A stretch of 64,000 nucleotides of DNA. Origin: Clavelina lepadiformis (taxonomy: Eukaryota > Chordata > Ascidiacea > Aplousobranchia > Clavelinidae). The notes beneath the pieces are model-generated. The model did no database searches. It was not told the DNA's origin and saw nothing but the letters and a program-made list of their open reading frames with translations. Every line of letters starts with the position of its first letter. Within the stretch, counting starts at the first letter, position 1. Below are positions 15,758 through 64,000 of this stretch, piece after piece. The translations under genes and the position numbers were made by a program. The DNA is taken from assembly GCF_947623445.1 (NCBI RefSeq), contig NC_135242.1:4278001-4342000 (forward strand), read 5' to 3'.

Positions 15758-15919
15758 ATTAGATTATATCTTCCCCACTTACAATTAACCATTAACTTGC
15801 AACGGGTAGGGATGGAGTGAGGACACAGTATTTTACTTCAGATACTGCTATAAGCTTCAGAACGCGGAATCATTTTCTTGGAGATTTTGATTTAAAGAGC
15901 TGATTTCAACGCAATTAAC

Positions 15920-18910
15920 ATGGATATTGACGAATTTCAAGAAGACATAGGAGGAATAACAAGATATCAAATTCTCATCATAGTCTTCACAGGTTTTCTC
16001 ACATTTGGTTCAGGATTTACACCGCAAGCTGCCATTTTTCTAAGCGCTGTACCGGACTTCAGGTTGGAAAACTTTGCACGTCATTATGTCAGTGAGTTAT
16101 TAACTGACGTGGAAAGGTTTAAGATGAAAGTTAACTTTTTAGTAGACATCAAAGTTTGTTGTTTGGTTATGAAAACATTTCATTACATTTGTAGGTGTTC
16201 GGTGTCGCCTATCGATAATTCCACGTTGTATCCTAACTTAACTGAGGAAGATATTGAATCCTTGACGATTCCTTATGACAGCAAGCAAGGGGTATTTGCT
16301 TTATTGTGTTATATAGCTATGAAAGAGTTGAAATATTATAAAGTTTTTTTTAAAATCATTTTACTAGGATTACGATTCATGCAATCGCTACGACTACAAT
16401 CTGAGCTCCTGCGAGGGAGATGGCAACTTGAGTTGCGTCACTTCCGATGAAGATCCCAGAACAATTCCATGTGACCAGGGATACTATTATGACCGAACCT
16501 ATTACGACGAGACAACTGTAACCCAAGTAAGCAAATCAGAAATGGCAAAGTTTATAACTTACAATTAACCATACAAATATGTTTCTACTTCAGTGGGATT
16601 TGGTATGCGACAGACAGTATCTGGATTCTTTGGCAAACACTTTGTTTTTCTTCGGATTTTTCATTGGTTCAGCTTTTATAGGACCACTTTCGGATTGGTA
16701 ATATTTCTACCAATAACATCTAATTTAAACCAAACCTATAGCTTTTGTCATAATAATCAAAACGGCTTTTGCATAAATCGATTACCTCTAGAGGTCATTA
16801 AAATGAAAAGGATATGTGGCAAATAGGTTCGGTCGGAGGGTGGCGCTGATTGTAGTGTGTTCAGGTCTGGTAGCCTGCAGTGTTGGTTGTGCATTTGCAC
16901 CTACTTATGAAATTTATACTTTCGTTCGTGTGCTCTGTGGAGCTTTTGGCATCACTTGCTTCATTGCATATTTCACATACGGTAAGCCGAAACTTAAGTT
17001 GTTTGATTCTGTACAAAGATGGCAAGCAGATAATGATACAAAGACAAAAAACTTTGTTTACTTCATGGTTTTTGTAAATGTTGATTTAACGCAGCGACTG
17101 AAATCTCTCCTACAAAGTGGCGAACTGAAACCTGCGCATACGTAAATATGACTACCGCTATTTGTCATACTATCTTTCCATGGATAGCATATGGGCTGAG
17201 AGACTGGCACTACATTCAATTAACGATAGCCCTCGTACCGGCAAACTTTTTCATCACGTTTTTCTTTATACCAGAATCGCCAAGGTATGTTGTTGTACAG
17301 TATGTATAATGATATCACAAACGCTGTCATAATCGCTCTGTGCACCTTTTTGATGCAGATGGCTCTTACGGATGGGAAAAACAGAAGAAGCCAGAAAAGT
17401 ATTGGCAAGGTACGCCAAAAGCAAGGACAAAGAGCTGACAGATGAAAAATGGAACAGTATCGTCGAATTTGAAGAAAAGAAGGTAAAAACTAAAGCTTTG
17501 GTTTCAATAGCATTTGCTGACTGGTACTTGATTTATTACAACATTGTATAATTTTACCTGAGAGCAAGGTGCAGTAAAACAAAATAAAATCTTAAAATAA
17601 TTGAGTAATTAAAAATGATTGATTTATTTATTAATGTTACACGTTCTGGAGAAACTGAGAAAAGCACAAAAAGCGAAATGTATTTTACTGCACAATAAAT
17701 AATTATGCATCGGTATGACTGATTCATCAGCTACAGTAGTCATTACGTCATTCATTTCATGTACGGTTACTAGAGGGCGTTAAGTGAAGAAAAACAAGAA
17801 ACTGCGAAAAGAGTCCGAGTTTGGGATTTATTCCGACGCCCCCTAATGAGACTCATGTCATTCAACGTTATGATTTCCTGGTTCACCGTCAGCATGGTCT
17901 TTAACGGTCTTGCCCTTAATGGTGGCAACTTAGCCGGTACAATTTACACGATAATTTTCGATTCATCATGTATAGTGACATTGCATTAAGTCGGTTTAAT
18001 GGTTCTTTTCCAGGCGACCCTTTTGTGAACACGACTCTGAATGCAATGGCTGAAATCGTTGCCTACGTTATTGTTTATTTTTCAACGAGCTTCGGTCGAA
18101 GACCGGTGTTCAGTGCAAGCTACATCTTAGCTGGAGTCGTCTGCATTGCCTCAATGTTGTTCGACTTGTACGCCAATGGGAACCAAGGTTTGTAAACTGA
18201 AATGATTAAAAAGTCAACATGTGTAATACATAATTATCGCTTTTCGACAGGGCTTTTCACAGCCAGCACAGCGATGGCAATTACGGGAAAGTGCTTCGCT
18301 TCTATTGGATTTGCGCTTGTTTACTCGGTAACCTCTGAAATATTTCCGACTAACGCAAGGTAAAACACTTTTGCAGAAAAAATCGTTTGACTTAGATGTA
18401 CAAATATAACACAAAACAATCTTTGGCACAGGGCTACTGGTCTGAGCTTGGGTTCTATGTCGGCTAGGGTCGGTGCTATGATATCACCTTTTGTGCTGCA
18501 ATTACAAACGACTATACCGTGGTTTACTCAGGTAGGTGCACACTTTTGGAGAAAACGTTAAGATTTGGCAATTGATATAAGGATTTGCTTGTAGCTAAAC
18601 AATTGCTATAAGTTGTATTTAGTGTTTAACGTAACTCCAATGCCGTGTTTTCAAACATACGCATTTGCACATTTCCGAACTACTTTATACCTTTGCACAA
18701 ATCTCCCAAGACAAAACCTCGATTGATATCTTTCGTTTGCAGACGGTTTTTGGAACTTTGTCGATAATAAGCGGATTTCTGGTTTTGTTATATCCCGAGA
18801 CCTCTAAAACTGAATACATGACGACGCTAGACGAGGCCGAAGACTTTTATTGGGAGAATATAAAAGCTCTAAAGTGGTTTGGAATGAAGAGGTTAGTTGA
18901 TAGCACTTAG
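15920..18910 (+). CDS. Gene C: SLC22-type (organic ion transporter-like) MFS protein
   Basis: Twelve exons sum to 1,686 nt (561 aa): 15920-16062, 16195-16291, 16368-16526, 16594-16697, 16827-16981, 17095-17284, 17359-17482, 17774-17936, 18014-18187, 18251-18359, 18432-18531, 18743-18910. All junctions are GT-AG and the phases close. Family marks: an N-terminal helix, then a large cysteine-rich extracellular loop (about residues 48-132), WDLVC after the loop, LSDW-FGRR (about 165-172; MFS motif A), PESPRWL (about 279-285), VWDLFRRPLMRL, and YPET with EYMTTLDEAE near the C-terminus. SLC22 proteins are 12-helix plasma-membrane carriers of organic cations, anions or carnitine. The substrate cannot be told here. 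Exon lengths are identical to gene D except the last. The C-terminus is as read to the first stop; AAGAG|GTTAGT could instead be a donor. Confidence 0.92.
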
Positions 18911-22115: not shown

Positions 22116-23539
22116 CACTGGACAACAGCAAAATTATTCCTCAAATGAAAATAAACTGCCTAGACTAACTTTGGGACGCTGATTCCAAATCTGAAATCAG
22201 AATTGGTCTATCACGTCAGGTTTTCAAGATATGAAAATTCACGAAATTCGGATTTTGCATTGATTGGCACTATATTATAAGGTTCTACAGTACAAGGTAT
22301 TGTGCAATTTTCTTTCCCAGCGAATTGTTGGTCATATTATGTCACAATGCATGTTATGTAAGATTAATATTGACATTATTTTGTAAATGCAATGTTCTAT
22401 CTTTTCACAATTAATGCATTCTTGAATGTTCTTGGCCATGACTATAGAGGGGGTGGGGGGGTAGGGGTAGGGGGGGGGGGGGAACATATGTGGAGACCTT
22501 AAAGTTGTGTCACTTTTGCTCGGATTGCAGTTGGGTTACACCAAGCATATGTGCTTTCTCTGTTTGTGGGACAGTCGAGACGATGCAAACCACTATGACA
22601 CAACTGAATGGCCAATGAGAACGGACTACATTGTTGGAAGATATAATGTTAAGTGCCAACCCCTAATTGATCCGAGCAAAGTGTACTTGCCACCACTTCA
22701 CATTAAACTGGGCCTGATCAAACAATTTGTGAAGGCAATGGATTTCAATGGAGATGGATTCCTGCATATAAAAGAAAAATTTGGTGCAATACCAAGTGAT
22801 GCTAAACTGAGAGCTGGAATATTTGTTGGCCCCCAAATACGTGATTTGATCCGTGACCCAGTATTTCCATCCAAGCTTAATTCAATTGAATTAAAAGCCT
22901 GGAATGCATTTGTACAGATTGTACAAAATTTTCTTGGGAAGTACAGGGCAGAAAATTACTCGGAACTAGTGGACAATTTGCTGGAATCATACCGCGAAAT
23001 GGGCGGCAGAATGTCGGTTAAACTGCATTTTCTTCATTCACACTTGGAATTTTTCCCGCCAAACCTGGGTGATGTGAGCGACGAGCATGGGGAAAGATTT
23101 CACCAAGACATCTCTGTGATGGAATCGCGGTATAGAGGTCGATTTAACCCAAACATGATGGGGGACTACTGCTGGTTTCTTCAGCGTGAAACTGACACTG
23201 AACATACTCGAAAGAGCAAGTGTATAAAGCACTTTTGAGGGAATATAATGTTATTTTTGTCTGATTTAATTATCCTGGGTTGTGTTAAATTGTGCAGTAT
23301 GATAATGCTGTTATTTTCAATAGAAATTACTGGGTTGATTACATGTAATGTTTTGTTCCGCTCAGCCAAAATTAGCCAAAATCACAGTTATGGGTTGTCG
23401 TGAGCATATATCATATCTCAAAAACGTGACGTGTTAGAAAAAATCTAAGACCAGATTTGAATTCAGCATTGCAAAATTAGTCTAGGTAAACTTGAAATGA
23501 GCGAGGAATAAAAAATAAGTTGTAAATTGTTGTCCAGTG
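22116..23539 (+). mobile_element. CACTG-ended DNA transposon with long terminal inverted repeats
   Basis: A 1,424-bp element starting CACTGGACAACA and ending TGTTGTCCAGTG, flanked by TTA on both sides (22113-22115, 23540-23542). Similarity between the ends extends inward over about 100 bp with gaps (CCTAGACTAA, ATCTG, AAGATATG-type blocks on both arms). CACTG ends with a 3-bp target duplication point to the CMC (EnSpm/CACTA-like) group. A G-rich tract at 22447-22483, able to form a quadruplex, abuts the coding part. The internal protein is only the C-terminal half of its family, so this looks like an internally deleted, non-autonomous copy. Confidence 0.85.
22507..23238 (+). CDS. C-terminal half of a transposon-borne protein (GYTK...CFLC...WDSR family)
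   Basis: An open frame of 243 codons ends at 23238. It begins in the G-rich tract without a convincing ATG; GTG 22507 is nominal, and in-frame GDLKVV lies upstream. Marks include LGLQLGYTK, CFLCLWDSR (CxxC-type), YLPPLHIKLGL, GIFVGPQIRDL, HFLHSHLEFFP, SDEHGERFHQD and DYCW. From memory this matches a family of 'uncharacterised' proteins common in insects, cnidarians and molluscs, which I regard as transposon proteins. The catalytic role is not known to me. The SDEHGERFHQD block with conserved acidic and His residues is a candidate active-site region. The N-terminal half is absent. Confidence 0.7.
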   Translation: MSLLLGLQLGYTKHMCFLCLWDSRDDANHYDTTEWPMRTDYIVGRYNVKCQPLIDPSKVYLPPLHIKLGLIKQFVKAMDFNGDGFLHIKEKFGAIPSDAKLRAGIFVGPQIRDLIRDPVFPSKLNSIELKAWNAFVQIVQNFLGKYRAENYSELVDNLLESYREMGGRMSVKLHFLHSHLEFFPPNLGDVSDEHGERFHQDISVMESRYRGRFNPNMMGDYCWFLQRETDTEHTRKSKCIKHF

Positions 23540-33293: not shown

Positions 33294-34871
33294 CTAAGCT
33301 GAAGGCTGATGATGAAGTCTATCAACCAGCATATCAATTCTTGGTTTTGTTTCGCTCAAAGTACACCGAAGGTCATGTTGCACATCACGTCTATCAAAAA
33401 AGTGTGATTCAATATACAAAATTTTTGAGAAAGCAGCCTCACAGGAATGAGTTGATGCAAAAGGCAGCAGGTGACGTAAAGCTAAGTTAATCAACTTTGG
33501 ATACGAAACTGCCATTGATGGCCAAAATACTGTGAGAGATTCAGTTTCAAACTTCATTTTGGCCGCTGTATCTTTCTGAAGTGCCAGCAGCTCGGTCTGG
33601 CCATCATCATGCATGCATGTCTCTGGAGCAGTGAAGGGAAACTTTACAATCAGAGAAGTTTGGCTTTCGATGTCTGGGATGTACCTTTCTAATTCCTCCA
33701 CCAAAGCTTGAAGATGTTGAACAATGAAATTCTTTACAGCAGTATCACACTGTTGTGTAATGTCTGACATTGTTTCGAACATTGCCAAGTTTCCTATTTC
33801 AACTTCCTGTCTCCAATTCTTCATCCTACGAATGAAAACTTTGATTTTGTCCACAAAATCAATTATTAAAGTTCCTTTACCTTGCAGCTCTAGGTTGAGT
33901 GTGATGATGTGTTGAAATATATCAACAAGGTAAGCTAGCTGTATTTCAAAGCCATCAGCGCACCATGCCGACAGCAAATCTTGTTGGTCTTGTGCTTCAA
34001 GGAAGACTCTGATCTCCTGTTTGAGCTCAAATATACGCTGGAGTATATTTCCTTCGAATAACCAGTGAACTTCTGTGTAAAGTAGAAGAATTTCATGAGT
34101 TGCATTTATATCCTGGCAGAGATCCTTGACAAGACGTGTCTCATGAGCAGTTTCTTTTAAAAATTCAACTGTCTTTATAATGGTGTTCAGAGTTTTCTGT
34201 AACTCTGAGGGTAGGGTTTGTGTAGTAAGACCTTGTCTGTGGATCATGCAGTGAAGTGGGATAGCATTTGGCGATTTTTGAAGAACTCTTGAAACAAAAC
34301 CTGACTTAGAACCTAGCAAGGCTGAAGCCCCATCTGTGCATATCGAACAAAGGTTTCCCCAGTCGAGACCATTTGCTTCAAAGAATTCCGAAAGTTTCTG
34401 AAGTACATCATCACTTTTCGTAGATTCTTCGAGAGTTTCACAAAACAAGAAATCCTCCTTTATATCACCACTATGAACATACCTAACAAAAGCCACAAGT
34501 TGTGAGCAACACTGGATTTCAGTGGACTCATCGAGTTGGATACTAAACAATCCAGCTTCTTTAAGTTGCTGTATCACTTGTTCTTTGATATCATCTGACA
34601 TTAGAGATATTTGGCGTTGAACTTTATCACTTGAGAGAGATAGACCAGCCATCTTTTCAGCACTTTCCTTATCTAAAACATGCTCAGCCATAATTTTGAT
34701 ACATGGCAAAATGACCTCATCGCCAATGGTGTAAGGTTCTTTTTCTTTTGCTATTAGAAGGGATAACACAAATGATGCTTTCTCTGATTTAGCATTTTCT
34801 TGGTGAATCAAACTGCTAGAATCAAGTCGTTGTCTCTTCATATTTAGTTTCAGGGAAGCAGAAAATAGCAT
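33294..34871 (-). CDS. hAT-superfamily transposase (ZBED5/SCAND3-like, BED domain not included)
   Basis: An uninterrupted 525-codon frame. It matches the catalytic part of Charlie-type hAT transposases as I know them: QLDEST, ICTDGAS, HCMIHR (the CxxH-type zinc-coordinating block), LLYTEVHWL, and the C-terminal dimerisation region LPFASTHSCEAAFSKI. DDE/RNase-H-fold acidic residues are plausible at the D of QLDEST and of CTDGA. Codons and frame look intact, so it is either recently active or domesticated. The usual N-terminal BED zinc finger is absent here, but a matching BED segment lies on the same strand at 36428-36646. Terminal repeats for this part were not found at its 3' side. Confidence 0.85.
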   Translation of the reverse strand: MLFSASLKLNMKRQRLDSSSLIHQENAKSEKASFVLSLLIAKEKEPYTIGDEVILPCIKIMAEHVLDKESAEKMAGLSLSSDKVQRQISLMSDDIKEQVIQQLKEAGLFSIQLDESTEIQCCSQLVAFVRYVHSGDIKEDFLFCETLEESTKSDDVLQKLSEFFEANGLDWGNLCSICTDGASALLGSKSGFVSRVLQKSPNAIPLHCMIHRQGLTTQTLPSELQKTLNTIIKTVEFLKETAHETRLVKDLCQDINATHEILLLYTEVHWLFEGNILQRIFELKQEIRVFLEAQDQQDLLSAWCADGFEIQLAYLVDIFQHIITLNLELQGKGTLIIDFVDKIKVFIRRMKNWRQEVEIGNLAMFETMSDITQQCDTAVKNFIVQHLQALVEELERYIPDIESQTSLIVKFPFTAPETCMHDDGQTELLALQKDTAAKMKFETESLTVFWPSMAVSYPKLINLALRHLLPFASTHSCEAAFSKILYIESHFFDRRDVQHDLRCTLSETKPRIDMLVDRLHHQPSA

Positions 34872-40387: not shown

Positions 40388-44595
<4,208 letters not shown>

Positions 44596-47562: not shown

Positions 47563-50500
47563 ATGAAACGCCATTTTTCTGTCGCCGGGCTAACAATAGC
47601 TGTTCTGCTTTTGCATTCATGCGCAATTGTATTAGCAGGTAAGCGAAACAAAATAATGCTGAGTGTCTTGTTTACAGTTCTGTTCTTAGTTTCCTGGGGT
47701 GGGGAAAAGAGATTAGATTACGGCGTAATGAATGAGAAAATCAAATTACTTTTTTAGATATATAAGATTATTCCTTGTTGTGTTGTTTCTACATTACCCA
47801 CGTAAGGTCATAGTTATTCAAGGGAGAACTGCATAATTATAATTAAAATTTTAAAGTGCTGCGTCATTTACAGGATAAACAAAAACCGGAAAAAAAGGTT
47901 GCAAATATGTAAAGTCAACGCGGGAACGAAAAACCAAAGACCATGAGAACAAAACCAAATTCTTTAACATTTCAATCAAATTGGTATAGATTTAAATCTA
48001 TTCCCAAATACGTGTTTTAATCAATAACATTGGTTTGATTCTTTTTCGATGTTTAGGATACCGTCCTATATTTTACAATGACGAGCTGAGTTAACTACCT
48101 TTTATTTGGAGTGGTAAACTTTTAATGATGGTTAGTTTTTAGTCTTTAAAGAAAAGCTTTTTTTATTGCCAAATTTTAATTTTTTGAATAATCAAGATGG
48201 GTTCGCCGGGTTATTCCGGATAGGCTAGCATCCGCAAAGTTATGTGATCTCTTCCTTTATTGATAACGTTTTTTATAAGAAATTACTTTGGGGAAAAGCC
48301 CGTTCATGAGACCAAGTTTTGTAAGTGGGTACCACTCTGCACGTCCATAGTAACATTTTAACAGTTGTTACCATTACGTGCTCAATGATAAGGCCATTTC
48401 CCCCTTCAGTATAAATTTTTAATAAAATTTATTTGTTTTAATATTTAGCCCAGCCCAGTCTTAACCTTACTGATATCACATCTTTCGGATTTCGTGTCAC
48501 CTACAACAATGTTACCGACGCGGCGTTTTATGAATTTTCTGTCACCGCCTTGCACAATGACACTGACCATGTTTCCTTCGTTCAAGCTGACACCACTGCT
48601 TCGGTTTGTATTATGTTGTTTTATAAAGAGATTAGCATAAAGTTTTTATAATGGGCGGCTGCAAATTATATCACACAGTTTATTGCAATGATCAACACCA
48701 TGTGATTGACACTGACTTTGATACATAATAAGTTAATAAGCAAGATTTTATTTCGGTAGTGCAACACACTTTTTTCAATACCACTTGTTGTTTTGAAATA
48801 TTGTCATGGATCTGGCTTTTAGCCTCTGGCCTATCTTTAGCAATGGAGAATCGCAATACTTTTACTGTGTCTTTGAAACAACAAGATAAATTATATAGAG
48901 GCATCATAATGAGTTTTTGTATTTATAACAAAGGCTAATTGTAAACAAAGACTAACCAATTATTACATCTATTATTGGAAACTTTTATTCTATTTAATCA
49001 TCGCTGCACCACTGCAACATACAACTCTGCAAATATCTGCTATGTTCTACACAACTTTTAATGTGTTGCAAATAAAGTATTATAAAAAACAACAAGGCAA
49101 CAAAATTAAATAGCTCGAGTGTATTTCTAAAGCCCTATGCTATATTCTGAGTAAATGTATTTGTATTTTTGTCTTTAAACTAATTGCGATTGGTGAAAAT
49201 GTTAAAGAAGTTTGCAGTGTTCTGTTGTTGAAGATAGGCGAGAGCCATCCTTGTGGGGACTAATGTGGAAGTCCACAACTACGTGATGCATTTGTATACT
49301 AGACCTCTGCAGCCCACATTGTGATGTCAGTTGGTTGTGAACTTGAATCAGTTCATGAATGAGTCAGTTGGTTGTGAACTGCCCCAAGCCCTATTTTTGC
49401 ACCTATAGTGCTTTATCATTATGGCAGATGGCAGTATAAAAAAGTTTATTAACTTCGATTATTACATGATTGGATTGATTGTAGGTTTTACAGAATGTGG
49501 CATTGAATCTTTCAGTAGCAGTGCGTGTTTTGTGACAGCCAGTTGGGTTAGAACAGGAGACATACAGAAAGTTACTCGTAAATTTTGTTTTTGTTGCAGT
49601 AAGGTTTAAATGGTACAATGGGGTAAGTTTGAGGTTAGTGTATGGTAGCCAACAATTCAGTGAGAAAGAAAGACTTGTACAAAGACTACAAATTTACTTT
49701 TGGTTTTGGCTATTACTATTGTAATGGAAAAATTTTTGACAATGATTTGATGATTATTCTTTTATCTAACTTAAAGCAAACCTAACATAAATTTCTTTTT
49801 AGAATAAAATTTTCTTCATTTAGTCTAACGAAAATAAAGTTTTATTTCTTTTTTAACCTAGTTGTCTTATACAATGGGTTTCTTGTCCGGATGTGGTAAA
49901 ATAATCACCCTCAAAAAGGAAATTATGTGTACTTGCTAATTTAATCTATGCATTAACTATTTTATTGTGGTTTTATGTCATTTCAAACAAATAATTTATA
50001 ATTTTTATCCAATTTATTTTTTAAAATTGGTTACAAAGGACATTTACTGATTAAATTATAATAATTGTGTAGATTAGTGACCGAAGAAGCAACATAGTTT
50101 ACATTGTCACAGTTAAATCTCTTGATGCAAACAATGTGACAGGAAATGAAATCACAGGCCGAGTAAGAACAGGTAATAATCTGCAGCACTGTGACACTGA
50201 CCATCTAACAATGTGTTTTGTTAGAATGTCGACGCATTTGGTATTGTGATAAATAATATGAAAACTTACAGTAAAATTACGATTTCATGTTTAATGTAGA
50301 TGTAATGTAATGAAATGAAATTTAATGTTTGACATTTAAAATTATGCTTTGCGTTTCTTTTGGTGGTGTGAAGACCACAAACATAGGCACAGATACAACT
50401 TTTAAAAATATTTCAGCTCCCGTTGGTGCATCCATTCTCCAAGTAATCACAACTCCAACATTTCTGACTGTGTTTTTGGAGGAAGTACCCGGAGCTATTG

Positions 50501-53500
50501 CTTTTGAAATTGAATACAACAACACTGAAACCGGAGTCAGTAACAGAAAGATTGTACCGGATGAAGTTCCGTCAGAAACTTTTTATGTTGCAATGTAATT
50601 ATGTTATGGTTTATTTTATAATTAGTGTTTTTATTTTTACCGTCAATACTTTAAGAAAACATAACCAGCAATAAACAAAAAATCAGTTGCCCGTACAAAC
50701 TTTTGCGATACCATTGGCATTGTGTTAAACTGAGGTAATGCTGATAATTGAGTTTTTGTAATTTCACTGTATGCACTTTATAATTGTAATTACTTGGTTT
50801 AAAGAATTGAAGCATTGATGCCAAATAGCGAATATACGTTGCGAGCCAGAGTCATGGAGGTAAATGGGACTAATTACAATCCTGAACAAAGTCCGTATGG
50901 GTCTGCCACGCATATTACGACAGGTACATTTGATTTGGTAGTCACTGTTCTTAGCAATTTTTGTTCCTTAATCCTTGACTCTGTGTTTTACCATAAATCT
51001 GTTTTATCATACCTCAAAGCATAATTTCAGGCAACTGTTTGTTTTAGACAAGATCTCTGCATTTGGACGAATTCAGTTGATAACCAGGAACATCACATCG
51101 TCTGTTGATGCAAGTTTAGAAGCAGAAATCGCTGCAGAATTGCTGAGTGCTTATAGAGGCATCATGACTAATGTGTCAAATGTGTCTGTTGTTGAACTTG
51201 AAAACGATGGATCGGGAAAAATTCTTTGTCATCATGAAATTATCTTGGATGATAAAATATCAGCATCAGATGGGTTTTTATCTGCGCTAAGGTTGAATAA
51301 TTCTACTTTTTACAATGGAAGCTCAGTGCGGTTTGGAGGTAAATTAACATAGATCGCTTTTATTTGTAGATCCACTCATACTGACTCCGTTTGCTACACA
51401 GTATCTTGTTTGTTTTCAGTATGTCTTTATTTAAACCTTCATGTAAATCTTTATTTCAGTTGCTCACGATCCTGGCTATCAGTACACTCGCCTCAGTGAC
51501 TTAATTTCGCTGCAATATGCTGATGGTCTGTTTTGTCGGTCTAGCTCAACAGATCAAAGATCTTGGACTTTATACAGCAGTAACGATGTAGCAGTTTCAG
51601 AGCAAATTCCCACAAATGGTGATGGGTTGGCAGACTCAATAGTAGAACTCATCCTGAATGATGCAGGCAATATTTTATAAAACAGTTTCATCAGAATGTT
51701 GTGCAAAAATCAATTATTCCAAAATGTTTTTAAGTCAAAGTTTGTCCAATTTCATCCAAACTATGTTATGCAGTATGCCTTGTTTAGAAATACTAATTGA
51801 AGTATTCAAGTACATGGTTTTAACATTTTTGAAAGTAATTTGTTTCTAATCTCTACAGAAATCATTTTGGTGACTGATTCACTTTCTCTGACTGGCCCTA
51901 GTTTGTTCTCCCTGAATTCAAGCACAATATATGGAATAAAACAGGAATATTTAATAAAAGCTTGTCCAGCTGATGAAAGTTCTACACTTTATTACAACAG
52001 AATTTATGAAGCTAAAGATTCGTCAGTCAACTCTGATAAATACACTATTTTTCATACAACAAGTATGTGAAATTTTTATGATCGTTTATGGTTATGGATT
52101 ATGTAGTAATGCTGTGTAGGTGCTTGGCTCAAAGTGCTCACTTAATAATATCGGTTTTAAGAAACTTAAAATGTGAGTTAATGAATTTCACTGTTGTTTA
52201 TTACATAGGAATGAAGTTATTTTTCATTGATCATTAGATGTAAAACATTGGAAAGGAACTAATCAGGGATAAAATCTTGTTTCTATGTAGGTCCTGCATC
52301 AGTGGCATCTGGAAGATTAAGTTCTCAAACTTTAGAAAGCAACACGGAAGCAGTTATTACAATTCCATCTACCTTGATACCACGAGCAGAGTCATATTCC
52401 TTTACTGCAAATGGTTTTACTACTACATTAAGTGAAGCTGACATTGACAGTTCTGCATCATTTAAGGTACTGGTATTTATGGTATTGCTTGCTTGTTTTA
52501 AAAAGTTACACCTTACACTTTTCGTGATGTAACATCTTCACTTGAAAAAAAAAACAGTTTTATCTAACATCACCAACTTGCATATAAGTTAAAAGCAATA
52601 ATTTTCTACTCATTTAAATATGTTTTTATTTTTTAAAAGTTGCTTTAGAAAAGACCACCTTGAACCATAAAACTATCTAATTTCTGATTTTGCTGGAATA
52701 GGTTCTGTGTTATGACATTAGGAATTCATCGCAAAAATTACCTCTAATCTAACCGCTATCTTTGCTTTTATTACTGACATTTAATTTCCTACTGACAGTA
52801 ACTTTAAAGCATAGGTCGGCAACCCGCGGCTCTTTCATGTCTGTGTTCTGGCTCCCACGACTCAGAGCCAACGAGCTCATTTAGGAAAACTTTATGTGAA
52901 TAAATAATGGTGTTTATTAATGTCACAATGTAATAACTTAATGCATTTGTCTGATTTTTCAGAATGTTTTATTAGGACGTGGAAAATTTTATATAAATAC
53001 TACACAGTGATTTTCGCAGACATAATACGCATGACTGCTTGCCACTCATGTGATCTTAAGTTTGTTTTAGTCCGAGGTCGCATGTCTTGGATTTTGGTCT
53101 TTGTTTGGTGACTATGCGGATTGTCATCGTTGTAGTGAGAATTTTGTGACAATAACTACTGAAGTTTTTACGTGTAACTGTCAAGCATTAGTTTGAATTA
53201 TATAAGTAGCGTTAGGTTTTTTGTTTTAAGTAGTCAATTAGGTGTTGTGGCTCAGAGTAGGTTTTAGTTTGACGGACAGGAGACCAAATGGCTCTTTCAA
53301 TGCTAAAGGTTGCCGAACCTTGCTCTAAAGTGACTCCGAACCAATCACACTTGCAGGTATCACCAACTTGCATATAAGTTAAAAACGATAATTTTCTACT
53401 CATTTAAATATGTTTTTATTTTTTAAAAGTTGCTTTAGAAAAGACCACCTTGAACCATAAAACTATCTTATTTCTGATTTTGCTGGAATAGGTTCTGTCT

Positions 53501-56500
53501 GATGACATTAGGAATTCATCGCAAAAATTACCTCAATTCTAACCGCTATCTTTGCCTTTATTACTAACTGTTAATTTCCTACTGACAGTAACTTTAAAGT
53601 GACTCCAAACCAAATATGCTTGCAGGTAACCCTGCAAAACCTGACCGTGAATGCCGACAATGTCATTGAAGTGCAGGCTCGTTCACGCCGAGCAAATGGG
53701 AACTTGCAGTCTACTTTCTTTACAAGAACAGTTTTCATTGGTACGGCTATGCGCTATTTTATCCTTGTTGTTTGTAATGGACAGAGCTGGGTAACCACTC
53801 TCTTAAATGAAGATTCGCTCGACTCTTCGATTAAAAAAGAGTGTTGCTTGTGCTTTTGCTTTTCTATAAATAAGGAGTGCCCTCATTTTGTCTCTTCCAC
53901 TCTCCCTCTTTCTAACAATTCAAAGATATTTTCAATTTGCCACATTTTCGAAAACCAATCGCCTTCGTTTTTTGCAAATTTGCAAGTAGCTTTTGTGTTT
54001 AACTGTAGCCTAATAAATGTTATGAAATTTCATAGAAACCAATGTTAAAGAGTTTTGTTTTCTTCACAAATGATCAATAAAGAAGTAGATTAGAACCTTG
54101 AATTATTGATACCCACGTTCATTAATTTAGTAGGGTATTACTCTTTTTCAAAGCATACTCGTATATCGCTTAAATCATAAAAATAACGGCAGTGTCAAGC
54201 AAATTATTGCTTTACCGTCGTTAGTAAAATGTGTAATCATTGTTGTAACAGATAAAATTAGTCTCAAAGAAGTCAAAAAAACGTAAAGGTTTGTCTTTTT
54301 GTCCAACTACTTTTATCCATTTTGTGCATGCAGAAATTTGTTTGTGCAAAAATGAAGAGCAAATAGTCATTAGAAAAGAGCACTATTGTGGTTTCACACC
54401 TAGTTTGAAATAAAACGTAGCTCTCGAAGTTCCCCGTAAAACAAGGCACATGCTCATGCCCAGCTCTGGTGATGGATATATTCTAACATACATGAAATAA
54501 TTTTTTTTTCATTTAATTGCAGATCTTAATGAATGTATTAATGAAACCTTTCCATGTGATGGTAATGCCAAATGCAGCAATTTCCCTGGAGGTTTCAATT
54601 GTTCTTGTAACTCTGGTTATAATGGAAATGGTTCCATATGCACTGATATAAACGAATGTGAGAATGAAACCTTTCCATGTGATAGTAATGCCAAATGCAG
54701 CAATTTCCCTGGTGGTTTCAATTGTTCTTGTAACTCTGGTTATAATGGAAATGGTTCCATATGCACTGATATAAACGAATGTGAGAATGAAACCTTTCCA
54801 TGTGATAGTAATGCCAAATGCAGCAATTTCCCTGGTGGTTTCAATTGTTCTTGTAACTCTGGTTATAATGGAAATGGTTCCATATGCACTGACATAAACG
54901 AATGCGAGAATGAAATCTTTCCATGTGATGGTAATGCCAAATGCAGCAATTTCCCTGGTGGTTTCAATTGTTCTTGTAACTCTGGTTATAATGGAAATGG
55001 TTCCATATGCACTGACATAAACGAATGTGAGAATGAAACCTTTCCATGTGATGGTAATGCCAAATGCAGCAATTTCCCTGGTGGTTTCAATTGTTCTTGT
55101 AACTCTGGTTATAATGGAAATGGTTCCATATGCACTGACATAAACGAATGTGAGAATGAAACCTTTCCATGTGATAGTAATGCCAAATGCAGCAATTTCC
55201 CTGGTGGTTTTAATTGTTCTTGTAACTCTGGTTATAATGGAAATGGTTCCATATGCACTGACATAAACGAATGCGAGAATGAAACCTTTCCATGTGATGG
55301 TAATGCCGAATGCAGCAATTTCCCTGGTGGTTTTAATTGTTCTTGTAACTCTGGTTATAATGGAAATGGTTCCATATGCACTGATATAAACGAATGTGAG
55401 AATGAAACCTTTCCGTGTGATGGTAATGCCGAATGCAGCAATTTCCCTGGTGGTTTCAATTGTTCTTGTAACTCTGGTTATAATGGAAATGGTTCCATAT
55501 GCACTGATATAAACGAATGTGAGAATGAAACCTTTCCATGTGATGGTAATGCCAAATGCAGCAGTTTACCCGGTAGTTTCAATTGTTCTTGTAACTCTGG
55601 TTATAATGGAAATGGTTCCATATGCACTGATATAAACGAATGTGAGAATGAAACCTTTCCATGTGATGGTAATGCCGAATGCAGCAATTTCCCTGGTGGT
55701 TTCAATTGTTCTTGTAACTCTGGTTATAATGGAAATGGTTCCATATGCACTGATATAAACGAATGTGAGAATGAAACCTTTCCATGTGATGGTAATGCCA
55801 AATGCAGCAATTTCCCTGGTGGTTTCAATTGTTCTTGTAACTCTGGTTATAATGGAAATGGTTCCATATGCACTGACATAAACGAATGCGAGAATGAAAT
55901 CTTTCCGTGTGATGGTAATGCCAAATGCAGCAATTTTCCTGGTGGTTTTAATTGTTCTTGTAATTCTGGTTATAATGGAAATGGTTCCATATGCACTGAC
56001 ATAAACGAATGCGAGAATGAAATCTTTCCATGTGATGGTAATGCCAAATGCAGCAATTTTCCTGGTGGTTTTAATTGTTCTTGTAATTCTGGTTATAATG
56101 GAAATGGTTCCATATGCACTGACATAAACGAATGCGAGAATGAAATCTTTCCATGTGATGGTAATGCCAAATGCAGCAATTTCCCTGGTGGTTTCAATTG
56201 TTCTTGTAACTCTGGTTATAATGGAAATGGTTCCATATGCACTGACATAAACGAATGTGAGAATGAAACCTTTCCATGTGATGGTAATGCCAAATGCAGC
56301 AATTTCCCTGGTGGTTTCAATTGTTCTTGTAACTCTGGTTATAATGGAAATGGTTCCATATGCACTGACATAAACGAATGTGAAAATGAAACCTTTCCAT
56401 GTGATGGTAATGCCGAATGCAGCAATTTCCCTGGTGGTTTTAATTGTTCTTGTAATTCTGGTTATAATGGAAATGGTTCCATATGCACTGACATAAACGA

Positions 56501-59500
56501 ATGCGAGAATGAAACCTTTCCATGTGATGGTAATGCCAAATGCAGCAATTTCCCTGGTGGTTTTAATTGTTCTTGTAACTCTGGTTATAATGGAAATGGT
56601 TCCATATGCACTGACATAAACGAATGCGAGAATGAAATCTTTCCATGTGATGGTAATGCCGAATGCAGCAATTTCCCTGGTGGTTTCAATTGTTCTTGTA
56701 ACTCTGGTTGTAATGGAAATGGTTCCATATGCACTGACATAAACGAATGTGAAAATGAAACCTTTCCATGTGATGGTAATGCCAAATGCAGCAATTTCCC
56801 GGGTGGTTTCAATTGTTCTTGTAACTCTGGTTATAATGGAAATGGTTCCATATGCACTGACATAAACGAATGCGAGAATGAAACCTTTCCATGTGATGGT
56901 AATGCCAAATGCAGCAATTTCCCTGGTGGTTTCAATTGTTCTTGTAACTCTGGTTATAATGGAAATGGTTCCATATGCACTGATATAAACGAATGTGAGA
57001 ATGAAACCTTTCCATGTGATGGTAATGCCAAATGCAGCAATTTTCCCGGTAGTTTCAATTGTTCTTGTAACTCTAGCTATAATGGAAATGGTTCCATATG
57101 CACTGACATAAACGAATGCGAGAATGAAATCTTTCCATGTGATGGTAATGCCAAATGCAGCAATTTTCCTGGTGGTTTCAATTGTTCTTGTAACTCTGGT
57201 TATAATGGAAATGGTTCCATATGCACTGACATAAACGAATGCGAGAATGAAATCTTTCCATGTGATGGTAATGCCAAATGCAGCAATTTCCCTGGTGGTT
57301 TCAATTGTTCTTGTAACTCTGGTTATAATGGAAATGGTTCCATATGCACTGACATAAACGAATGCGAGAATGAAATCTTTCCATGTGATGGTAATGCCAA
57401 ATGCAGCAATTTTCCTGGTGGTTTCAATTGTTCTTGTAACTCTGGTTATAATGGAAATGGTTCCATATGCACTGACATAAACGAATGCGAGAATGAAATC
57501 TTTCCATGTGATGGTAATGCCAAATGCAGCAATTTTCCTGGTGGTTTTAATTGTTCTTGTAACTCTGGTTATAATGGAAATGGTTCCATATGCACTGACA
57601 TAAACGAATGCGAGAATGAAATCTTTGCATGTGATGGTAATGCCAAATGCAGCAATTTCCCTGGTGGTTTCAATTGTTCTTGTAACTCTGGTTATAATGG
57701 AAATGGTTCCATATGCACTGATATAAACGAATGTGAGAATGAAACCTTTCCATGTGATGGTAATGCCGAATGCAGCAATTTCCCTGGTGGTTTTAATTGT
57801 TCTTGTAACTCTGGTTATAATGGAAATGGTTCCATATGCACTGACATAAACGAATGCGAGAATGAAATCTTTCCATGTGATGGTAATGCCAAATGCAGCA
57901 ATTTCCCTGGTGGTTTCAATTGTTCTTGTAACTCTGGTTATAATGGAAATGGTTCCATATGCACTGATATAAACGAATGCGAGAATGAAACCTTTCCGTG
58001 TGATGGTAATGCCAAATGCAGCAATTTTCCCGGTGGTTTCAATTGTTCTTGTAACTCTGGTTATAATGGAAATGGTTCCACATGCACTGACATAAACGAA
58101 TGCGAGACTGGAAACGGTAGCTGTTCTAATAATGCAGCTTGCGTTAACTTCCCAGGATCATTTAATTGTTCTTGTGATTCTGGGTTTGCTGGTAATGGAA
58201 CTTACTGTTTAGGTAAATATAGTTAGAGGGACCTGTGTAGTAATGTTTATATTAATTAACAAAATGATGTAATATTTTTTTTATCATTTTTGTGAATTGT
58301 AGTAGTAATTATATATTGGCGTTATCTCATTATTGAAAATTGCTTTCTAGTCATTAAATTTTTTTTTGCAGAAATTCCCCAACTTTCAGCTTTCATTACA
58401 AACATTACTTCAGTTTCATTTGTACTGGTTCTTAATGTGATGGAACCCACACTTTTCTATGAGGTATTTTATTTTAAAATGATGAGGGTTTTAATTTTGA
58501 TGAACAGACTTTTGTTATGGTCATTGCAATCTGTATAATAAGGTTAAGATAACTAGGTAATAAAATCTATATTATTTTTCTTTATTTAGATGTGTAATTT
58601 TGTTTAAATGCGCTTTTTAGCGCTACACCAGAAGCAAAAAAATAGCGAAATGTATTTGTTGTTTTCTTTATCTTTATAGACTGTTGTGACCAACCTTGAC
58701 ACAACAGAAGCTATTGTTTTACAAATCAACAACCCTGAGCTGGTCATTAAAAATCTTACCGAAGGAACAAATTACTCTGTAATGGTGGTTGTTAGACATT
58801 CTGACGTTTCACTCAACCTCTACCAAGTAACAAGTAAATACCAACGTATCGTAAAACAGCGAAGATTTTTTATATGTGTATTTCATTAAATTGAACGGTA
58901 TGTAAATATCAGTTTCATAGCTCCTATGTAGCGAAACTTTATTGCATTGTAATGCTATGTTAAGCACCTGGATTGCCATCTGGTTTTCAACCTGAAAACG
59001 TTGAAACAAACTTTGCAACGTTTTCTTGGGATTCTCTAAAAGGAGCTTCATATTACATTATCAGTGCATTTTTAAGAGATACCAGAAGACAAAGACAGAC
59101 ATCTACTGATGACGTTGTAAGAAAGTTTTGTAATAGTTGATTAAACCTGCAAGTGTTGTAAGCCATACGTGTTCATACATGCAACTGTTTTAAGTCAAAC
59201 TTCAAAAGAAACCAAAACCTTTGAAAACGTGCATGCATATCCTCTGTACTTTACAGGTTGTGGCTAATGTGACAGACACAACATCAGGTGCAATAAAGGG
59301 ATTTCGTTCTGGCAGCAATTATCAAATTTCGTTTGCAGGCGGAAATGTTGGCGGTTTGGGCCCTTCCGTGTATACCTCTATTGTTACAAGTGAATAATCT
59401 TGCAATGCACATTTAACATTTTAAGCCAAATGGACTCTTTTCTGATAGTAATCACTTGTTCTACTATCAAATTGCTTCTTTCAGGGCCAGCCGCAGTTAT

Positions 59501-61461
59501 GCCGGTAGTTGAAGCATACAATGGCACATTCGTGAACATAACTTGGCCTTTGCCAATGGGAGCGGTTAACTACACTGCCACGATCTATTCCAATGATACT
59601 GTAACAAGCGTTGTGCACACAGAAGGTAACTTTGTTTGAATAAATTTTTTTATTATGTAGACATTTTAAAGAGAATGAAGTCACATGATCTCATCGTATA
59701 ATGAACATTGTTTACCCTAAATGGGCATATTGCAAACTTGGAAATTACAAAGTAAAATCTATTGATGACTATTTATTAAAAGTTCAACGTACATATGCTT
59801 TAAACTGACGTTTGGTGTCCGAGTTTTAGTTTAGTTTCTATGTACATGGAATAAAGCTGCACAACTTCATAACAGTGATCTTGTTCTTTTAGACCTTTAT
59901 GCTGAAATCGAAAATCTAAACCCTGTATTGGACTACAGAATAGAAATTTATGGCTGCAATACTGAAAATTTATGCAGCAATGCATCAACCCTTGTTTTAG
60001 AAATAGGTTAGTCATGAACAGCTGTGAATTGGCTTGTCCAGTCTACACAAGTTTGTTCTTACACATACATTTTCCCCATTTCTTATTTGCAAAACCATTA
60101 GAGTTTGATATATCAATCTTGTAGTTGTGTATTGTTGAATTGTTTTGTTGCCCCTACAAACTGGCCTTTGTATTTTCCAGATGAATGTGAAAACGCAAAC
60201 GCACTCTGTAGTGTTAATGCTAGCTGTACTAACACGGTAGGTAGCTTCACTTGCCTCTGTGAAAATGGCTTTGCTGACAACGGTACCCACTGCGTTGATG
60301 TAGACGAATGCGCCGCTAGTAGCTGCGATGCAAATTCCAGGTGTACCAATGGCGAAGGCAGTTTTTATTGCACCTGCAATGTTGGATTCACTGGAAATGG
60401 AAAGACGTGTGTCGAAGACATGGATGAATGCGCTTTGGATTCACATAACTGTCATCTAAACGCCCGTTGCAACAGCACCAACGGCAGTTTTACCTGCACC
60501 TGCAACCCTGGATATACCGGTTACGGTGTCAATTGCACGGATATCGACGAGTGCGAAATAGGCACGGCTGGTTGTCATCCCCAAGCCAACTGTGAGAACT
60601 CAGAAGGAGGCTATCAGTGTACTTGCTTGTCTGGATTTTCGGGCAACGGTGTAGTTTGCAACGACGTTGATGAGTGTTTGAGTAATGGAAGGATTTGTCG
60701 TGAAAACGCGTTTTGCCGCAATTCGTTTGGAAGTTTTGCTTGTATCTGTAGCCAAGGATTTGTTAGTGACGGGATTGTTTGTCACAAAAATGGTAAGTAC
60801 TTATCGAGTGCGTAATCCGATGTGTAGTGATCGTATTAAAGCCTCTTTAATCTTTGACATTTCGTGTTGAAATCTTACTTTCGCGTATGTAATGTTGCCA
60901 ATTATGTTTATTATGCGGCCAAATGATAAACGAGTGGTGTCTGGCAACATGTATTATGCTGATTTGATCTCGCCGATTAACCTTTATGGGAAAATGATTT
61001 TTGTTTCTTTTTCAGATTTTATTTGGTGGATACCAGTTTTGGTGGTGATCATGATAGCGGTCGCAGTAATAGTCTTTGCTGTGATTGTTTACAGACGAAA
61101 ACATGCCACTGTGAGTTAATATAGAATAATCGCCTGGTCTTAAACACACGCAGTGCGAATATATTTAAGTCAGGGATAATTTCAGAGCAAATTTGTTTTG
61201 ACAGTCAGTTTTGACTATAATGTTTTTTAAGTTTATTCATACTTTTTACCAAAAAATGTATCTTTACTTTTTTGAATCTTAAATGACATGCTTTTAATTA
61301 CTGTTTTAATCTTTCAGAAAAAATATGTTGTGAACGGAAGTAAAGAAGGAAATGACGCTCACCACCAAAGCTTACAACATAACCATAACAACGAACTTGA
61401 AAGCAACAGAGTGGGAAAAGGGGAGAGAACTGATGTCGAAATACGAGTTGACAATTTGTAA
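47563..61461 (+). CDS. Gene B: intact SP-FN3-SEA-FN3-EGF(30)-FN3(3)-EGF(5)-TM receptor-like protein
   Basis: Twenty exons, 6,948 nt, 2,315 aa: 47563-47638, 48449-48603, 50073-50172, 50417-50594, 50805-50923, 51048-51338, 51460-51666, 51859-52062, 52291-52466, 53626-53740, 54523-58212, 58372-58463, 58680-58833, 58965-59116, 59257-59389, 59485-59625, 59893-60006, 60181-60792, 61016-61110, 61318-61461. Phases close throughout; intron 7 appears GC-AG. Order: signal peptide (1-25), FN3-like modules (about 26-209), SEA-like (210-306; VSVVELENDGSG, ILCHHEIIL), a linker with conserved cysteines shared with gene A (IYGIKQEYLIK), FN3-like (444-540), 30 EGF units (541-1770), three FN3-like modules (1771-2032; TFSWDSLKGASYY), five EGF domains (2033-2236; DxDEC, calcium-binding type), one membrane helix (about 2240-2262) and a 50-residue polar tail. 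It is most likely a cell-surface adhesion or recognition protein; the ligand is unknown. The ATG chosen is the one directly before the hydrophobic leader. Confidence 0.92.
49230..49440. other. Gene B intron 2 segment with short repeat
   Basis: The 1.47-kb intron 2 (48604-50072) has no second gene. A GTCAGTTGGTTGTGAACT block occurs twice (near 49325 and 49362). Small open frames on both strands are unsupported. Confidence 0.4.
52567..53625 (+). repeat. Tandemly duplicated splice-acceptor segment, interrupted by a hAT MITE
   Basis: A 269-bp unit (53357-53625) ending in the exon 10 acceptor TTGCAG is preceded by another copy (52567-52809 plus 53331-53356), about 95% identical, ending in its own ACTTGCAG. 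Only the first copy contains the transposon, so duplication came first. Use of the upstream acceptor at 53356 would add VSPTCI and a stop. Confidence 0.9.
52810..53322. mobile_element. hAT-type MITE in gene B intron 9
   Basis: A 513-bp element with ends CATAGGTCGGCAACC and GGTTGCCGAACCTTG, imperfect inverted repeats of hAT type. It is flanked by CTTTAAAG (52802-52809) and CTCTAAAG (53323-53330), an 8-bp target duplication with one change. No transposase inside. It differs from the element at 3113-3450. Confidence 0.9.
54523..58212 (+). repeat. 30-unit EGF coding minisatellite of gene B
   Basis: Twenty-nine units of exactly 123 bp from 54523 to 58089, then one diverged unit, in a single 3,690-bp exon with no stop. 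Consensus: D-I-N-E-C-E-N-E, (T/I)FPCD(G/S), NA(K/E)CSN, FPGGFNCSC, NSGYNGNGS, ICT. Variation is confined to a few sites, mostly synonymous, plus T/I, G/S and K/E swaps. Single oddities are a Y to C (near 56709), P to A (near 57627) and G to S (near 57075). The start is DINEC or DLNEC rather than DxDEC. The unit has almost no methionine, so ATG-based gene finders miss this exon. Confidence 0.97.
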
Positions 61462-62879: not shown

Positions 62880-63882
62880 ATGGTAAAAGCTAAGAGATTC
62901 ATCAAATTACTCTTTGTGGCATTTGAGTTGTCAATCTTAACAGGCTATGCCCAGATTTCAGGTAATGTTTTGAACTAAATGTTAATCTCAAACAAAACCT
63001 TGCGTAGATTTGTGTACTACTAATCTAACTGGTATGCATCAAGCACGTCATATTAACAACTTGATTTAAGTGTCGATGTTTATTTGTAGCTAATATCCTA
63101 ACAATTTCAAATTTTACTTATAAAGTAATTTAGAGTTAAAACATGCACTAAAAATAAATTTTTGGTTTTTAAAATATATAAGAAAACATATTTAAGCAGT
63201 AATAGTCATAAAAATATTTTATTCAAAACGTTTTTAACACAAAATATAATTAGTAACTACCTTGGGTTTTCCCCGTAGACAAAACGGTCACTTTGGTACT
63301 TCGTGGAGAAGGTTTGTTGCGAGTTTGGTATGGTAAGGTTAATAATAATGTTAAGTTTAAGATTCCGCTCAGAATCTTTATCCTCGAACTGAGTATAATT
63401 AATTATTTAATTAATCCTCGAACTTAATAATAATTAATGATTCCTTTTATCAACTGTCACTCAAACAACGACGTTTGCTCCGTTTGTTTATCATAATCTA
63501 TTACAAATGTGAAACAAGCTTGCGTTCAGTTTGACGTGCCACGATTTCCAGTACAGGGTTAAAGACTCGTGGTTTAAGAAACTCTCCTTTGACCTGTTAA
63601 ATAAACGTTGTTGTAACATTTCTAAATCCCTAATTCAAAAAATCTTTCTCTCAGGTAAAAGTATTTGATTAAAATTAACCACTTGCTTATGTAGTCTTGT
63701 GTTAGTTTTTTAAATTTCTGCTTTTAGCCCCAGCTATCGTCAGTGTGGGTGAAGTTAACTGGACTTGATTTGTGATAACATACAGAGCTGTTCCTGACCC
63801 TGTGGCATTTGAAATTAAAGTAACAGCACACCATAACAGTAGTGATGTCCTGAAAGATATTACTACTTCAACTAAATTAGAA
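62880..63882 (+). pseudogene. Third A/B paralogue, first two exons, in-frame TGA in exon 2
   Basis: Exon 1, 62880-62961, encodes MVKAKRFIKLLFVAFELS..., a signal peptide, and ends in phase 1 like genes A and B. Exon 2, 63728-63882, is exactly 155 nt with an AG acceptor and GT donor in the same phases as A and B. It reads as the first FN3 strand set (FVITYRAVPDPVAFEIKVTA). TGA at 63766-63768 interrupts it after GEVNWT. The gene continues beyond the window, so it could be a decayed copy, an allele or a sequencing error. Intron 1 (62962-63727) shows nothing else. Confidence 0.65.
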
Positions 63883-64000
63883 GTAGCCTAATCTATTTGT
63901 AAGTAAGTAAATTTTGTAGGTTATTTTAAATCATTTCTTTTAACTTTATGATATGAGTTGATTTTTTTATAAGCTTGGTTAATATAACTGTAGTCATGTT

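What the first reader, a model, noticed from the sequence alone, without database searches (positions are those of the whole stretch)
54523..58212. A 30-repeat EGF exon hidden from ATG-based gene finding
The largest coding exon in the window (3,690 bp, 1,230 codons) encodes 30 EGF modules. Because the repeated unit has no Met it gives no plus-strand open reading frame starting at ATG. The 29 units are nearly identical at DNA level, which implies recent expansion or ongoing homogenisation of a coding minisatellite, so copy number probably differs between alleles.
Basis: partly seen in the sequence, partly recalled or inferred. Interest (0 to 1): 0.8.

Follow-up and report, generated by a model that had tools for sequence, protein, structure and literature searches.

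The report
Thirty-EGF single-exon coding repeat array
A sea-squirt gene carries one giant exon made of thirty almost identical EGF modules, and its neighbours carry the same kind of exon with about 1 to 91 modules, so it looks like a protein stalk whose length changes quickly in evolution.

Summary
Window 54523-58212 is one 3,690-bp, phase 1-1, stop-free exon of exactly 30 x 123 bp, encoding 30 calcium-binding EGF modules with no in-frame ATG. Units 1-29 average 96.2% DNA identity; unit 30 is diverged. The exon fits a 20-exon gene model (47563-61461; 2,315 aa): signal-peptide-like start, FN3s, a SEA-like domain, 30 EGFs, more FN3s, 5 EGFs, a transmembrane-like segment, a short tail.

The species is Clavelina lepadiformis: an NCBI protein of that species matches the neighbouring paralogue (window 1916-14421) at 708 of 709 residues. 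It omits that paralogue's EGF array, which has lost the acceptor seen in other paralogues and has two stop codons.

The gene is one of eight related loci clustered on one chromosome. EGF-exon unit counts at seven are 91, 46, 2, 5, about 1, 19 (dead) and 30. Four of these differ by only 0.06-0.10 synonymous changes per site in a flanking exon, so unit number changes fast. Two more giant arrays (about 106 and 92 units) lie 2.4 Mb away. Units look homogenised within genes. Allelic copy-number difference is likely but untested; expression of this exon is unproven. 'Hidden from ATG-based finding' is true but ordinary.

The parts
54523..58212 (+). Gene B exon 11: the 30-EGF array exon, 3,690 bp, phase 1-1
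54525..58091 (+). EGF units 1-29, 123 bp each, mean 96.2% identity
58092..58212 (+). EGF unit 30, diverged edge unit
47563..47638 (+). Gene B exon 1: start codon and signal-peptide-like sequence (recognised by eye)
48449..50923 (+). Gene B exons 2-5 (48449-48603, 50073-50172, 50417-50594, 50805-50923): N-terminal FN3 region
51048..51338 (+). Gene B exon 6: SEA-like domain; seven paralogous matches in the cluster
51460..53740 (+). Gene B exons 7-10 (51460-51666 with a possible GC donor, 51859-52062, 52291-52466, 53626-53740): no Pfam match in this part; exon 10 looks FN3-like by eye
58372..60006 (+). Gene B exons 12-17 (58372-58463, 58680-58833, 58965-59116, 59257-59389, 59485-59625, 59893-60006): FN3 domains (3 stretches)
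60181..60792 (+). Gene B exon 18: five membrane-proximal EGF modules
61016..61461 (+). Gene B exons 19-20 (61016-61110, 61318-61461): transmembrane-like segment (by eye) and short tail to the stop codon
1916..14421 (+). Gene A, tandem paralogue; NCBI LOC143450535 isoform X2 maps here at 708 of 709 residues
10388..12844 (+). Dead EGF array of gene A: 19 units, two TGA codons, no splice acceptor at the site used by paralogues; absent from the NCBI protein (junction 9265|12912)

Best explanation
The exon is a coding minisatellite. A 123-bp (41-codon) calcium-binding EGF module has multiplied in frame inside one phase 1-1 exon of a single-pass membrane protein gene of Clavelina lepadiformis. SHOWN: the open 30-unit exon, a phase-consistent gene model, unit homogeneity within the gene, and a paralogue series with about 1 to 91 units in the corresponding exon. 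INFERRED: units are gained, lost and homogenised by unequal exchange and gene conversion, which any whole-unit step leaves in frame. INFERRED: the protein is a cell-surface adhesion or recognition molecule in which the EGF array is a calcium-stiffened, N-glycosylated rod holding the FN3-SEA head away from the membrane (some 80-90 nm for 30 units at about 3 nm each, a recalled figure), so unit number sets reach. PREDICTED: copy number differs between alleles.
Against: No RNA or protein evidence for this exon. Two protein searches with the gene's N-terminal 540 residues did not return its own database entry (candidates limited by length and to the 7,993 sharing most words). No allele or second individual could be examined. 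This array's longest exact repeat is not clearly longer than its units give by chance (18 of 300), so very recent change is not shown here. The SEA exon is not recognised by Pfam. The best Foldseek E-value is weak (0.016). The PHI-like test is only nominal. The rod function rests on general knowledge of tandem calcium-binding EGFs; no ligand is known.
Confidence: 0.75

Rival explanations
1. The units are kept alike by gene conversion alone and the number 30 is fixed: concerted evolution without copy-number change.
For: Moderate unit divergence (mean dS 0.13), no significant long exact block in this array (18 of 300 shuffles reach it), and mosaic columns.
Against: Unit number differs strongly among paralogues that are 0.06-0.10 dS apart in a flanking exon. 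A 12-unit exact block duplication is seen in G1. Neighbours in this array are more alike than shuffled.
Confidence: 0.17
2. The exon is an alternative cassette that is mostly or always skipped, so the array contributes little protein.
For: Phase 1-1 exons can be skipped in frame. The NCBI model of gene A joins 9265 to 12912 and omits its array region.
Against: Gene A's array lacks the paralogues' acceptor and has two stops, so its skipping is explained by decay. Gene B's exon keeps both splice sites, 0 stops and dN/dS 0.14.
Confidence: 0.1
3. The array is an assembly artefact or a decaying pseudo-exon.
For: Long tandem arrays are error-prone in assemblies in general; a neighbouring array in the same window is a decayed one.
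Against: HiFi fragments of 12-20 kb at 117x and QV 67.4 against an array of 3.7 kb. Units are distinguishable (24 distinct of 29). No stop in 1,229 codons and purifying selection.
Confidence: 0.04

Closest known systems
PRDM9 C2H2 zinc-finger array (coding minisatellite)
   Same: Tandem near-identical domain units in frame, array size differing; PMC3890296 (passages seen, abstract text included) describes allelic diversity of copy number and a minisatellite structure.
   Different: Nuclear DNA-binding domain varying mostly at DNA-contact residues; here an extracellular EGF array with dN/dS 0.14. Allelic variation is not tested here.
LPA kringle IV type 2 repeat of apolipoprotein(a)
   Same: Near-identical extracellular disulphide domains in copy-number-variable tandem; PMC11462820 gives 5.6 kb per unit and 1-40 units per allele (start of abstract seen in the listing).
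   Different: That unit is 5.6 kb and includes introns (the latter recalled); here the unit is a 123-bp intronless module inside one exon.
Tenascins
   Same: EGF-like repeats encoded on a single exon; PMC1578592 (passages seen). Also carry FN3 domains.
   Different: Fibrinogen-related C-terminus, matrix proteins; the near-identity of units seen here is not described in the passages I saw.
Fibrillins, LTBPs, NELL2, Notch (tandem calcium-binding EGF proteins)
   Same: Same EGF_CA module family. Solved tandem EGFs found by sequence include NELL2 (E 1.3e-27), uromodulin, Notch and fibrillin-1.
   Different: No TB domains found in the parts scanned. Exon borders of EGF repeats are enriched in the linkers between modules (PMC1553488, section 11 read), unlike this intronless array; the exon layout of these particular proteins is recalled, not checked.

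Membership tests
Calcium-binding EGF (EGF_CA, PF07645) | Match above the Pfam gathering score with six Cys and the D/N-x-D/N-E/Q-C motif | tested here: met
   731.8 bits against cut-off 27, 30 stretches; motif in 29 of 30, the first split by an intron (motif recalled); 29 of 30 units with six Cys
Coding minisatellite | Head-to-tail near-identical units of equal length, in frame, inside one exon | tested here: met
   30 x 123 bp, mean 96.2% for units 1-29, 0 stops
Coding minisatellite | Unit number varies between alleles | not testable with these tools
   One haplotype held; the array was found at one place in the 95 contigs. Paralogues vary from about 1 to 91 units
Coding minisatellite | Exon is expressed and translated | not testable with these tools
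   No RNA reads here; RNA run ERR10908613 exists
SEA domain | Curated sequence-profile match | tested here: not met
   No PF01390 match with E up to 1 in the gene B head, P0121 or the G2 SEA exon (HMMER's filters drop most matches above about 0.1)
SEA domain | SEA fold | tested here: met
Fibrillin/LTBP family | TB (8-Cys) domains between EGF blocks | tested here: not met
   No PF00683 among matches of the parts scanned (exons 19-20 not scanned)
Tenascin family | Fibrinogen-related C-terminal domain | tested here: not met
   Gene model ends with EGFs, a transmembrane-like segment and a short tail; no such Pfam match in the parts scanned

The most novel reading that the evidence does not exclude
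A colonial chordate has a chromosome-3 system of surface receptors whose stalk length is a hypervariable, rapidly evolving trait. Single-exon EGF minisatellites of about 1 to 106 units are gained and lost almost at allelic time scales, so individuals or colonies differ in receptor reach or mechanics, with possible roles in adhesion or self/non-self recognition.
Probability: 0.15. Interest if true: 0.8.

Novelty: new member of a known kind. Interest (0 to 1): 0.5.

Why it matters
EGF repeats are thought to grow often by duplication of one-module exons. A survey of repeat proteins (PMC1553488, section 11 read) found repeats of ten or more domains in one large exon for zinc fingers and leucine-rich repeats, and says other families always have them spread over several exons; tenascins (passages) are an EGF exception to single modules per exon. 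Open exons or frames with 30, 46, 91, about 92 and about 106 EGF modules on one chromosome are therefore unusual. A set of near-identical paralogues with very different unit counts makes the rate and mechanism of domain-array growth, and the effect of stalk length on a membrane protein, directly measurable with data already deposited.

Tried and rejected
Antisense reading: minus-strand open frames of 350 and 863 aa cross the array. One minus frame of the 123-bp unit has no stop, so it stays open by repetition; rejected as a gene.

Fibrillin, LTBP or tenascin membership: considered and not met (see membership table). Among the 120 rows listed of 2,204 hits, identity is at most 53%; I read these as matches of the EGF modules only.

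P0121 single-sequence model: mean pLDDT 37.7, not used. The 37-row alignment of exon pieces was too scattered (mean column identity 6%) and not used. Edge-unit comparison: the first units of G2 and G5 are alike (78%), but the last units give no clear signal.

A single block-duplication event explaining this array: not supported.

Allelic divergence as a yardstick: I looked for a figure. The Clavelina genome paper has no mention of heterozygosity (term search), and passages of PMC1868934 speak of extreme heterozygosity in Ciona savignyi without giving me a number. So 'allelic time scales' in the novel case is inference. PMC12373286 (passages) has no mention of EGF.

Second giant cluster (about 106 and 92 units, 6.746-6.793 Mb): described only; its genes were not modelled. 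The EGF_CA genome search scored 150 of 1,485 candidates, so there may be more arrays.

Literature on such arrays: searches showed none in Clavelina, but two lists were capped (20 of 717; 20 of 30,288), and apart from the papers named as read in passages or sections I saw listings only.

Rows dropped before counts: only units of exactly 123 bases were compared (B 29 of 30, G1 91, G2 45 of 46, H1 104 of 106, H2 92 of 93); of gene A's 19 units, 18 were used and the first 16.

Full report
WHAT IS THERE. Window 54523-58212 is one open exon of 3,690 bp, exactly 30 x 123 bp. It starts after ...TTGCAG and ends before GTAAAT; both boundaries are phase 1. It holds 1,229 whole codons with no stop and no Met; none of its 259 plus-strand ATGs is in the coding frame. 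Pfam finds 30 EGF_CA stretches. Units 1-29 differ at 24 of 123 columns and average 96.2% identity. Unit 30 is an outlier: its best match among full-length units of nine arrays is 65.8%.

SPECIES. The window is G000:C3:4278001-4342000 in a 209-Mb, 95-contig genome. An NCBI protein labelled Clavelina lepadiformis LOC143450535 isoform X2 (P0121) maps exon by exon onto window 1916-14421, 708 of 709 residues exact. The published assembly is 210.1 Mb in 102 scaffolds with chromosome 3 at 25.74 Mb (PMC10884593, passages); C3 here is 25,734,561 bases. The small differences are unexplained.

CLUSTER. The SEA-like exon has eight matches in the genome, all on C3 between 4.201 and 4.344 Mb; one contains a stop. 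I call them G1, G2 (minus strand), G3, G4, G5, gene A and gene B (in the window), and G8. Their EGF exons hold: G1 91 units in an 11,223-bp exon, G2 46 in 5,658 bp, G3 2, G4 5, G5 one unit and a fragment, gene A 19, gene B 30. G8's EGF count was not established. Exon borders for G1-G5 come from a home-made predictor. G1 and G2 arrays have no stop. One of 91, 5 of 46 and 1 of 30 units in G1, G2 and B lack the six-Cys pattern.

DEAD ARRAY IN THE WINDOW. Gene A's array (10388-12844) has TGA codons at 10514 and 10883. Where G1, G2 and G5 have a splice acceptor gene A has none; an AG further upstream would meet a stop in the array's frame just before 10388. The NCBI protein joins 9265 to 12912 and omits the array. 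So one paralogue appears to have lost its array while the rest of the gene is kept. I did not see isoform X1.

HOMOGENISATION AND TURNOVER. Mean identities: G1 95.5, G2 91.3, A 82.1 (18 full-length units), B 96.2; B against G1, G2, A and G4 58-62, and against the two distant arrays 59.6 and 56.4. The nearest neighbour lies only within the same array for 29 of 29 units in B, 88 of 91 in G1 (2 more tie), 44 of 45 in G2, 12 of 18 in A (4 more tie), 98 of 104 in H1 (1 more ties) and 92 of 92 in H2, but for none of 4 in G4 (1 ties). Within-array dS/dN: B 0.130/0.019, G1 0.107/0.034, G2 0.166/0.077, A 0.284/0.106 (16 units). In the SEA exon B is at dS 1.5-2.9 from G1, G2, G4, G5 and A and saturated against G3, while G1, G2, G5 and A are 0.06-0.10 from each other. 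So four very close paralogues carry 91, 46, about 1 and 19 dead units. That is the strongest evidence for fast change in number. Exact in-register repeats against 300 order shuffles each: G1 1,537 bp (0 reach it; maximum 528), H1 785 (0), G2 381 (0), B 296 (18), A 179 (40), H2 839 (51). So B, A and H2 show no block that must be very recent. Adjacent units are more alike than shuffled in all six arrays (0 to 2 of 300 shuffles as low; B 1). Column incompatibility in B is 32 of 66 pairs, PHI-like p 0.027 (G1 0.011, G2 0.047), nominal hints of exchange between units.

BEYOND THE CLUSTER. A G1-type unit search found two more arrays on C3: 6746431-6759603 (H1) with an open frame of 4,391 aa and 106 units (104 of full length, mean identity 84.5), and 6781264-6792714 (H2) with 3,817 aa and 92 full units, mean identity 98.2. 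In an EGF_CA search that scored 150 of 1,485 candidates, the only open frames above 144 aa were the arrays of 1,945, 3,755, 3,817 and 4,391 aa; B's exon was not among the 150.

FUNCTION (inferred). Nearly every unit keeps the calcium and hydroxylation motifs; B has 80 N-glycosylation sequons (motif rules recalled). Tandem calcium-binding EGFs form stiff rods (recalled; solved relatives NELL2, Notch and fibrillin-1 found). The array lies between an FN3-SEA-like head and a membrane-proximal FN3-EGF part, so a stalk or spacer role is the simplest reading. A role in colony recognition is speculation; the one search aimed at ascidian allorecognition with EGF and FN3 found no paper.

JUDGEMENT. A real coding minisatellite, one of at least five open large EGF arrays on this chromosome (B, G1, G2, H1, H2). 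It is unusual in size and in having a paralogue series, but the kind (PRDM9, LPA KIV-2, single-exon tenascin EGFs) is known.

Noticed in passing
window 10388-12844 and 1916-14421: Paralogue gene A carries a dead EGF array (two stops, no acceptor at the paralogues' site); an NCBI protein of the gene omits it. The two stop-bearing units lie three units apart and have the same translation, so the stop seems to have been copied with the unit.
   Followed up: yes
L018-L019 (G000:C3:4182918-4194140, minus strand): Paralogue G1: an 11.2-kb exon with 91 EGF units and an exact 1,537-bp internal repeat at 12 units.
   Followed up: yes
L034-L035 and L037-L038 (G000:C3:6746431-6759603 and 6781264-6792714, minus strand): Two further giant single-frame EGF arrays, about 106 and 92 units, 2.4 Mb from the window.
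   Followed up: partly
L027:4052-4213 (gene G5): A paralogue whose EGF exon is down to one unit and a fragment, as if most of an array had been deleted.
   Followed up: partly
window 33294-34871, minus strand: Open frame of 525 aa with only sub-threshold matches to DUF4371 and the hAT dimerisation region; probably a hAT-like transposon gene.
   Followed up: partly
window 15896-18907: Several frames of what looks like a solute transporter gene (Sugar_tr match for one of two frames scanned, E 1.3e-05).
   Followed up: partly
window 41533-41694: Perfect GATA microsatellite, 40.5 copies.
   Followed up: no
window 22471-23238: Open frame of 255 aa without a Pfam match.
   Followed up: no
window 63769-63888 and L028: Probable start of another paralogue (G8), whose SEA-like exon beyond the window contains a stop codon.
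   Followed up: no
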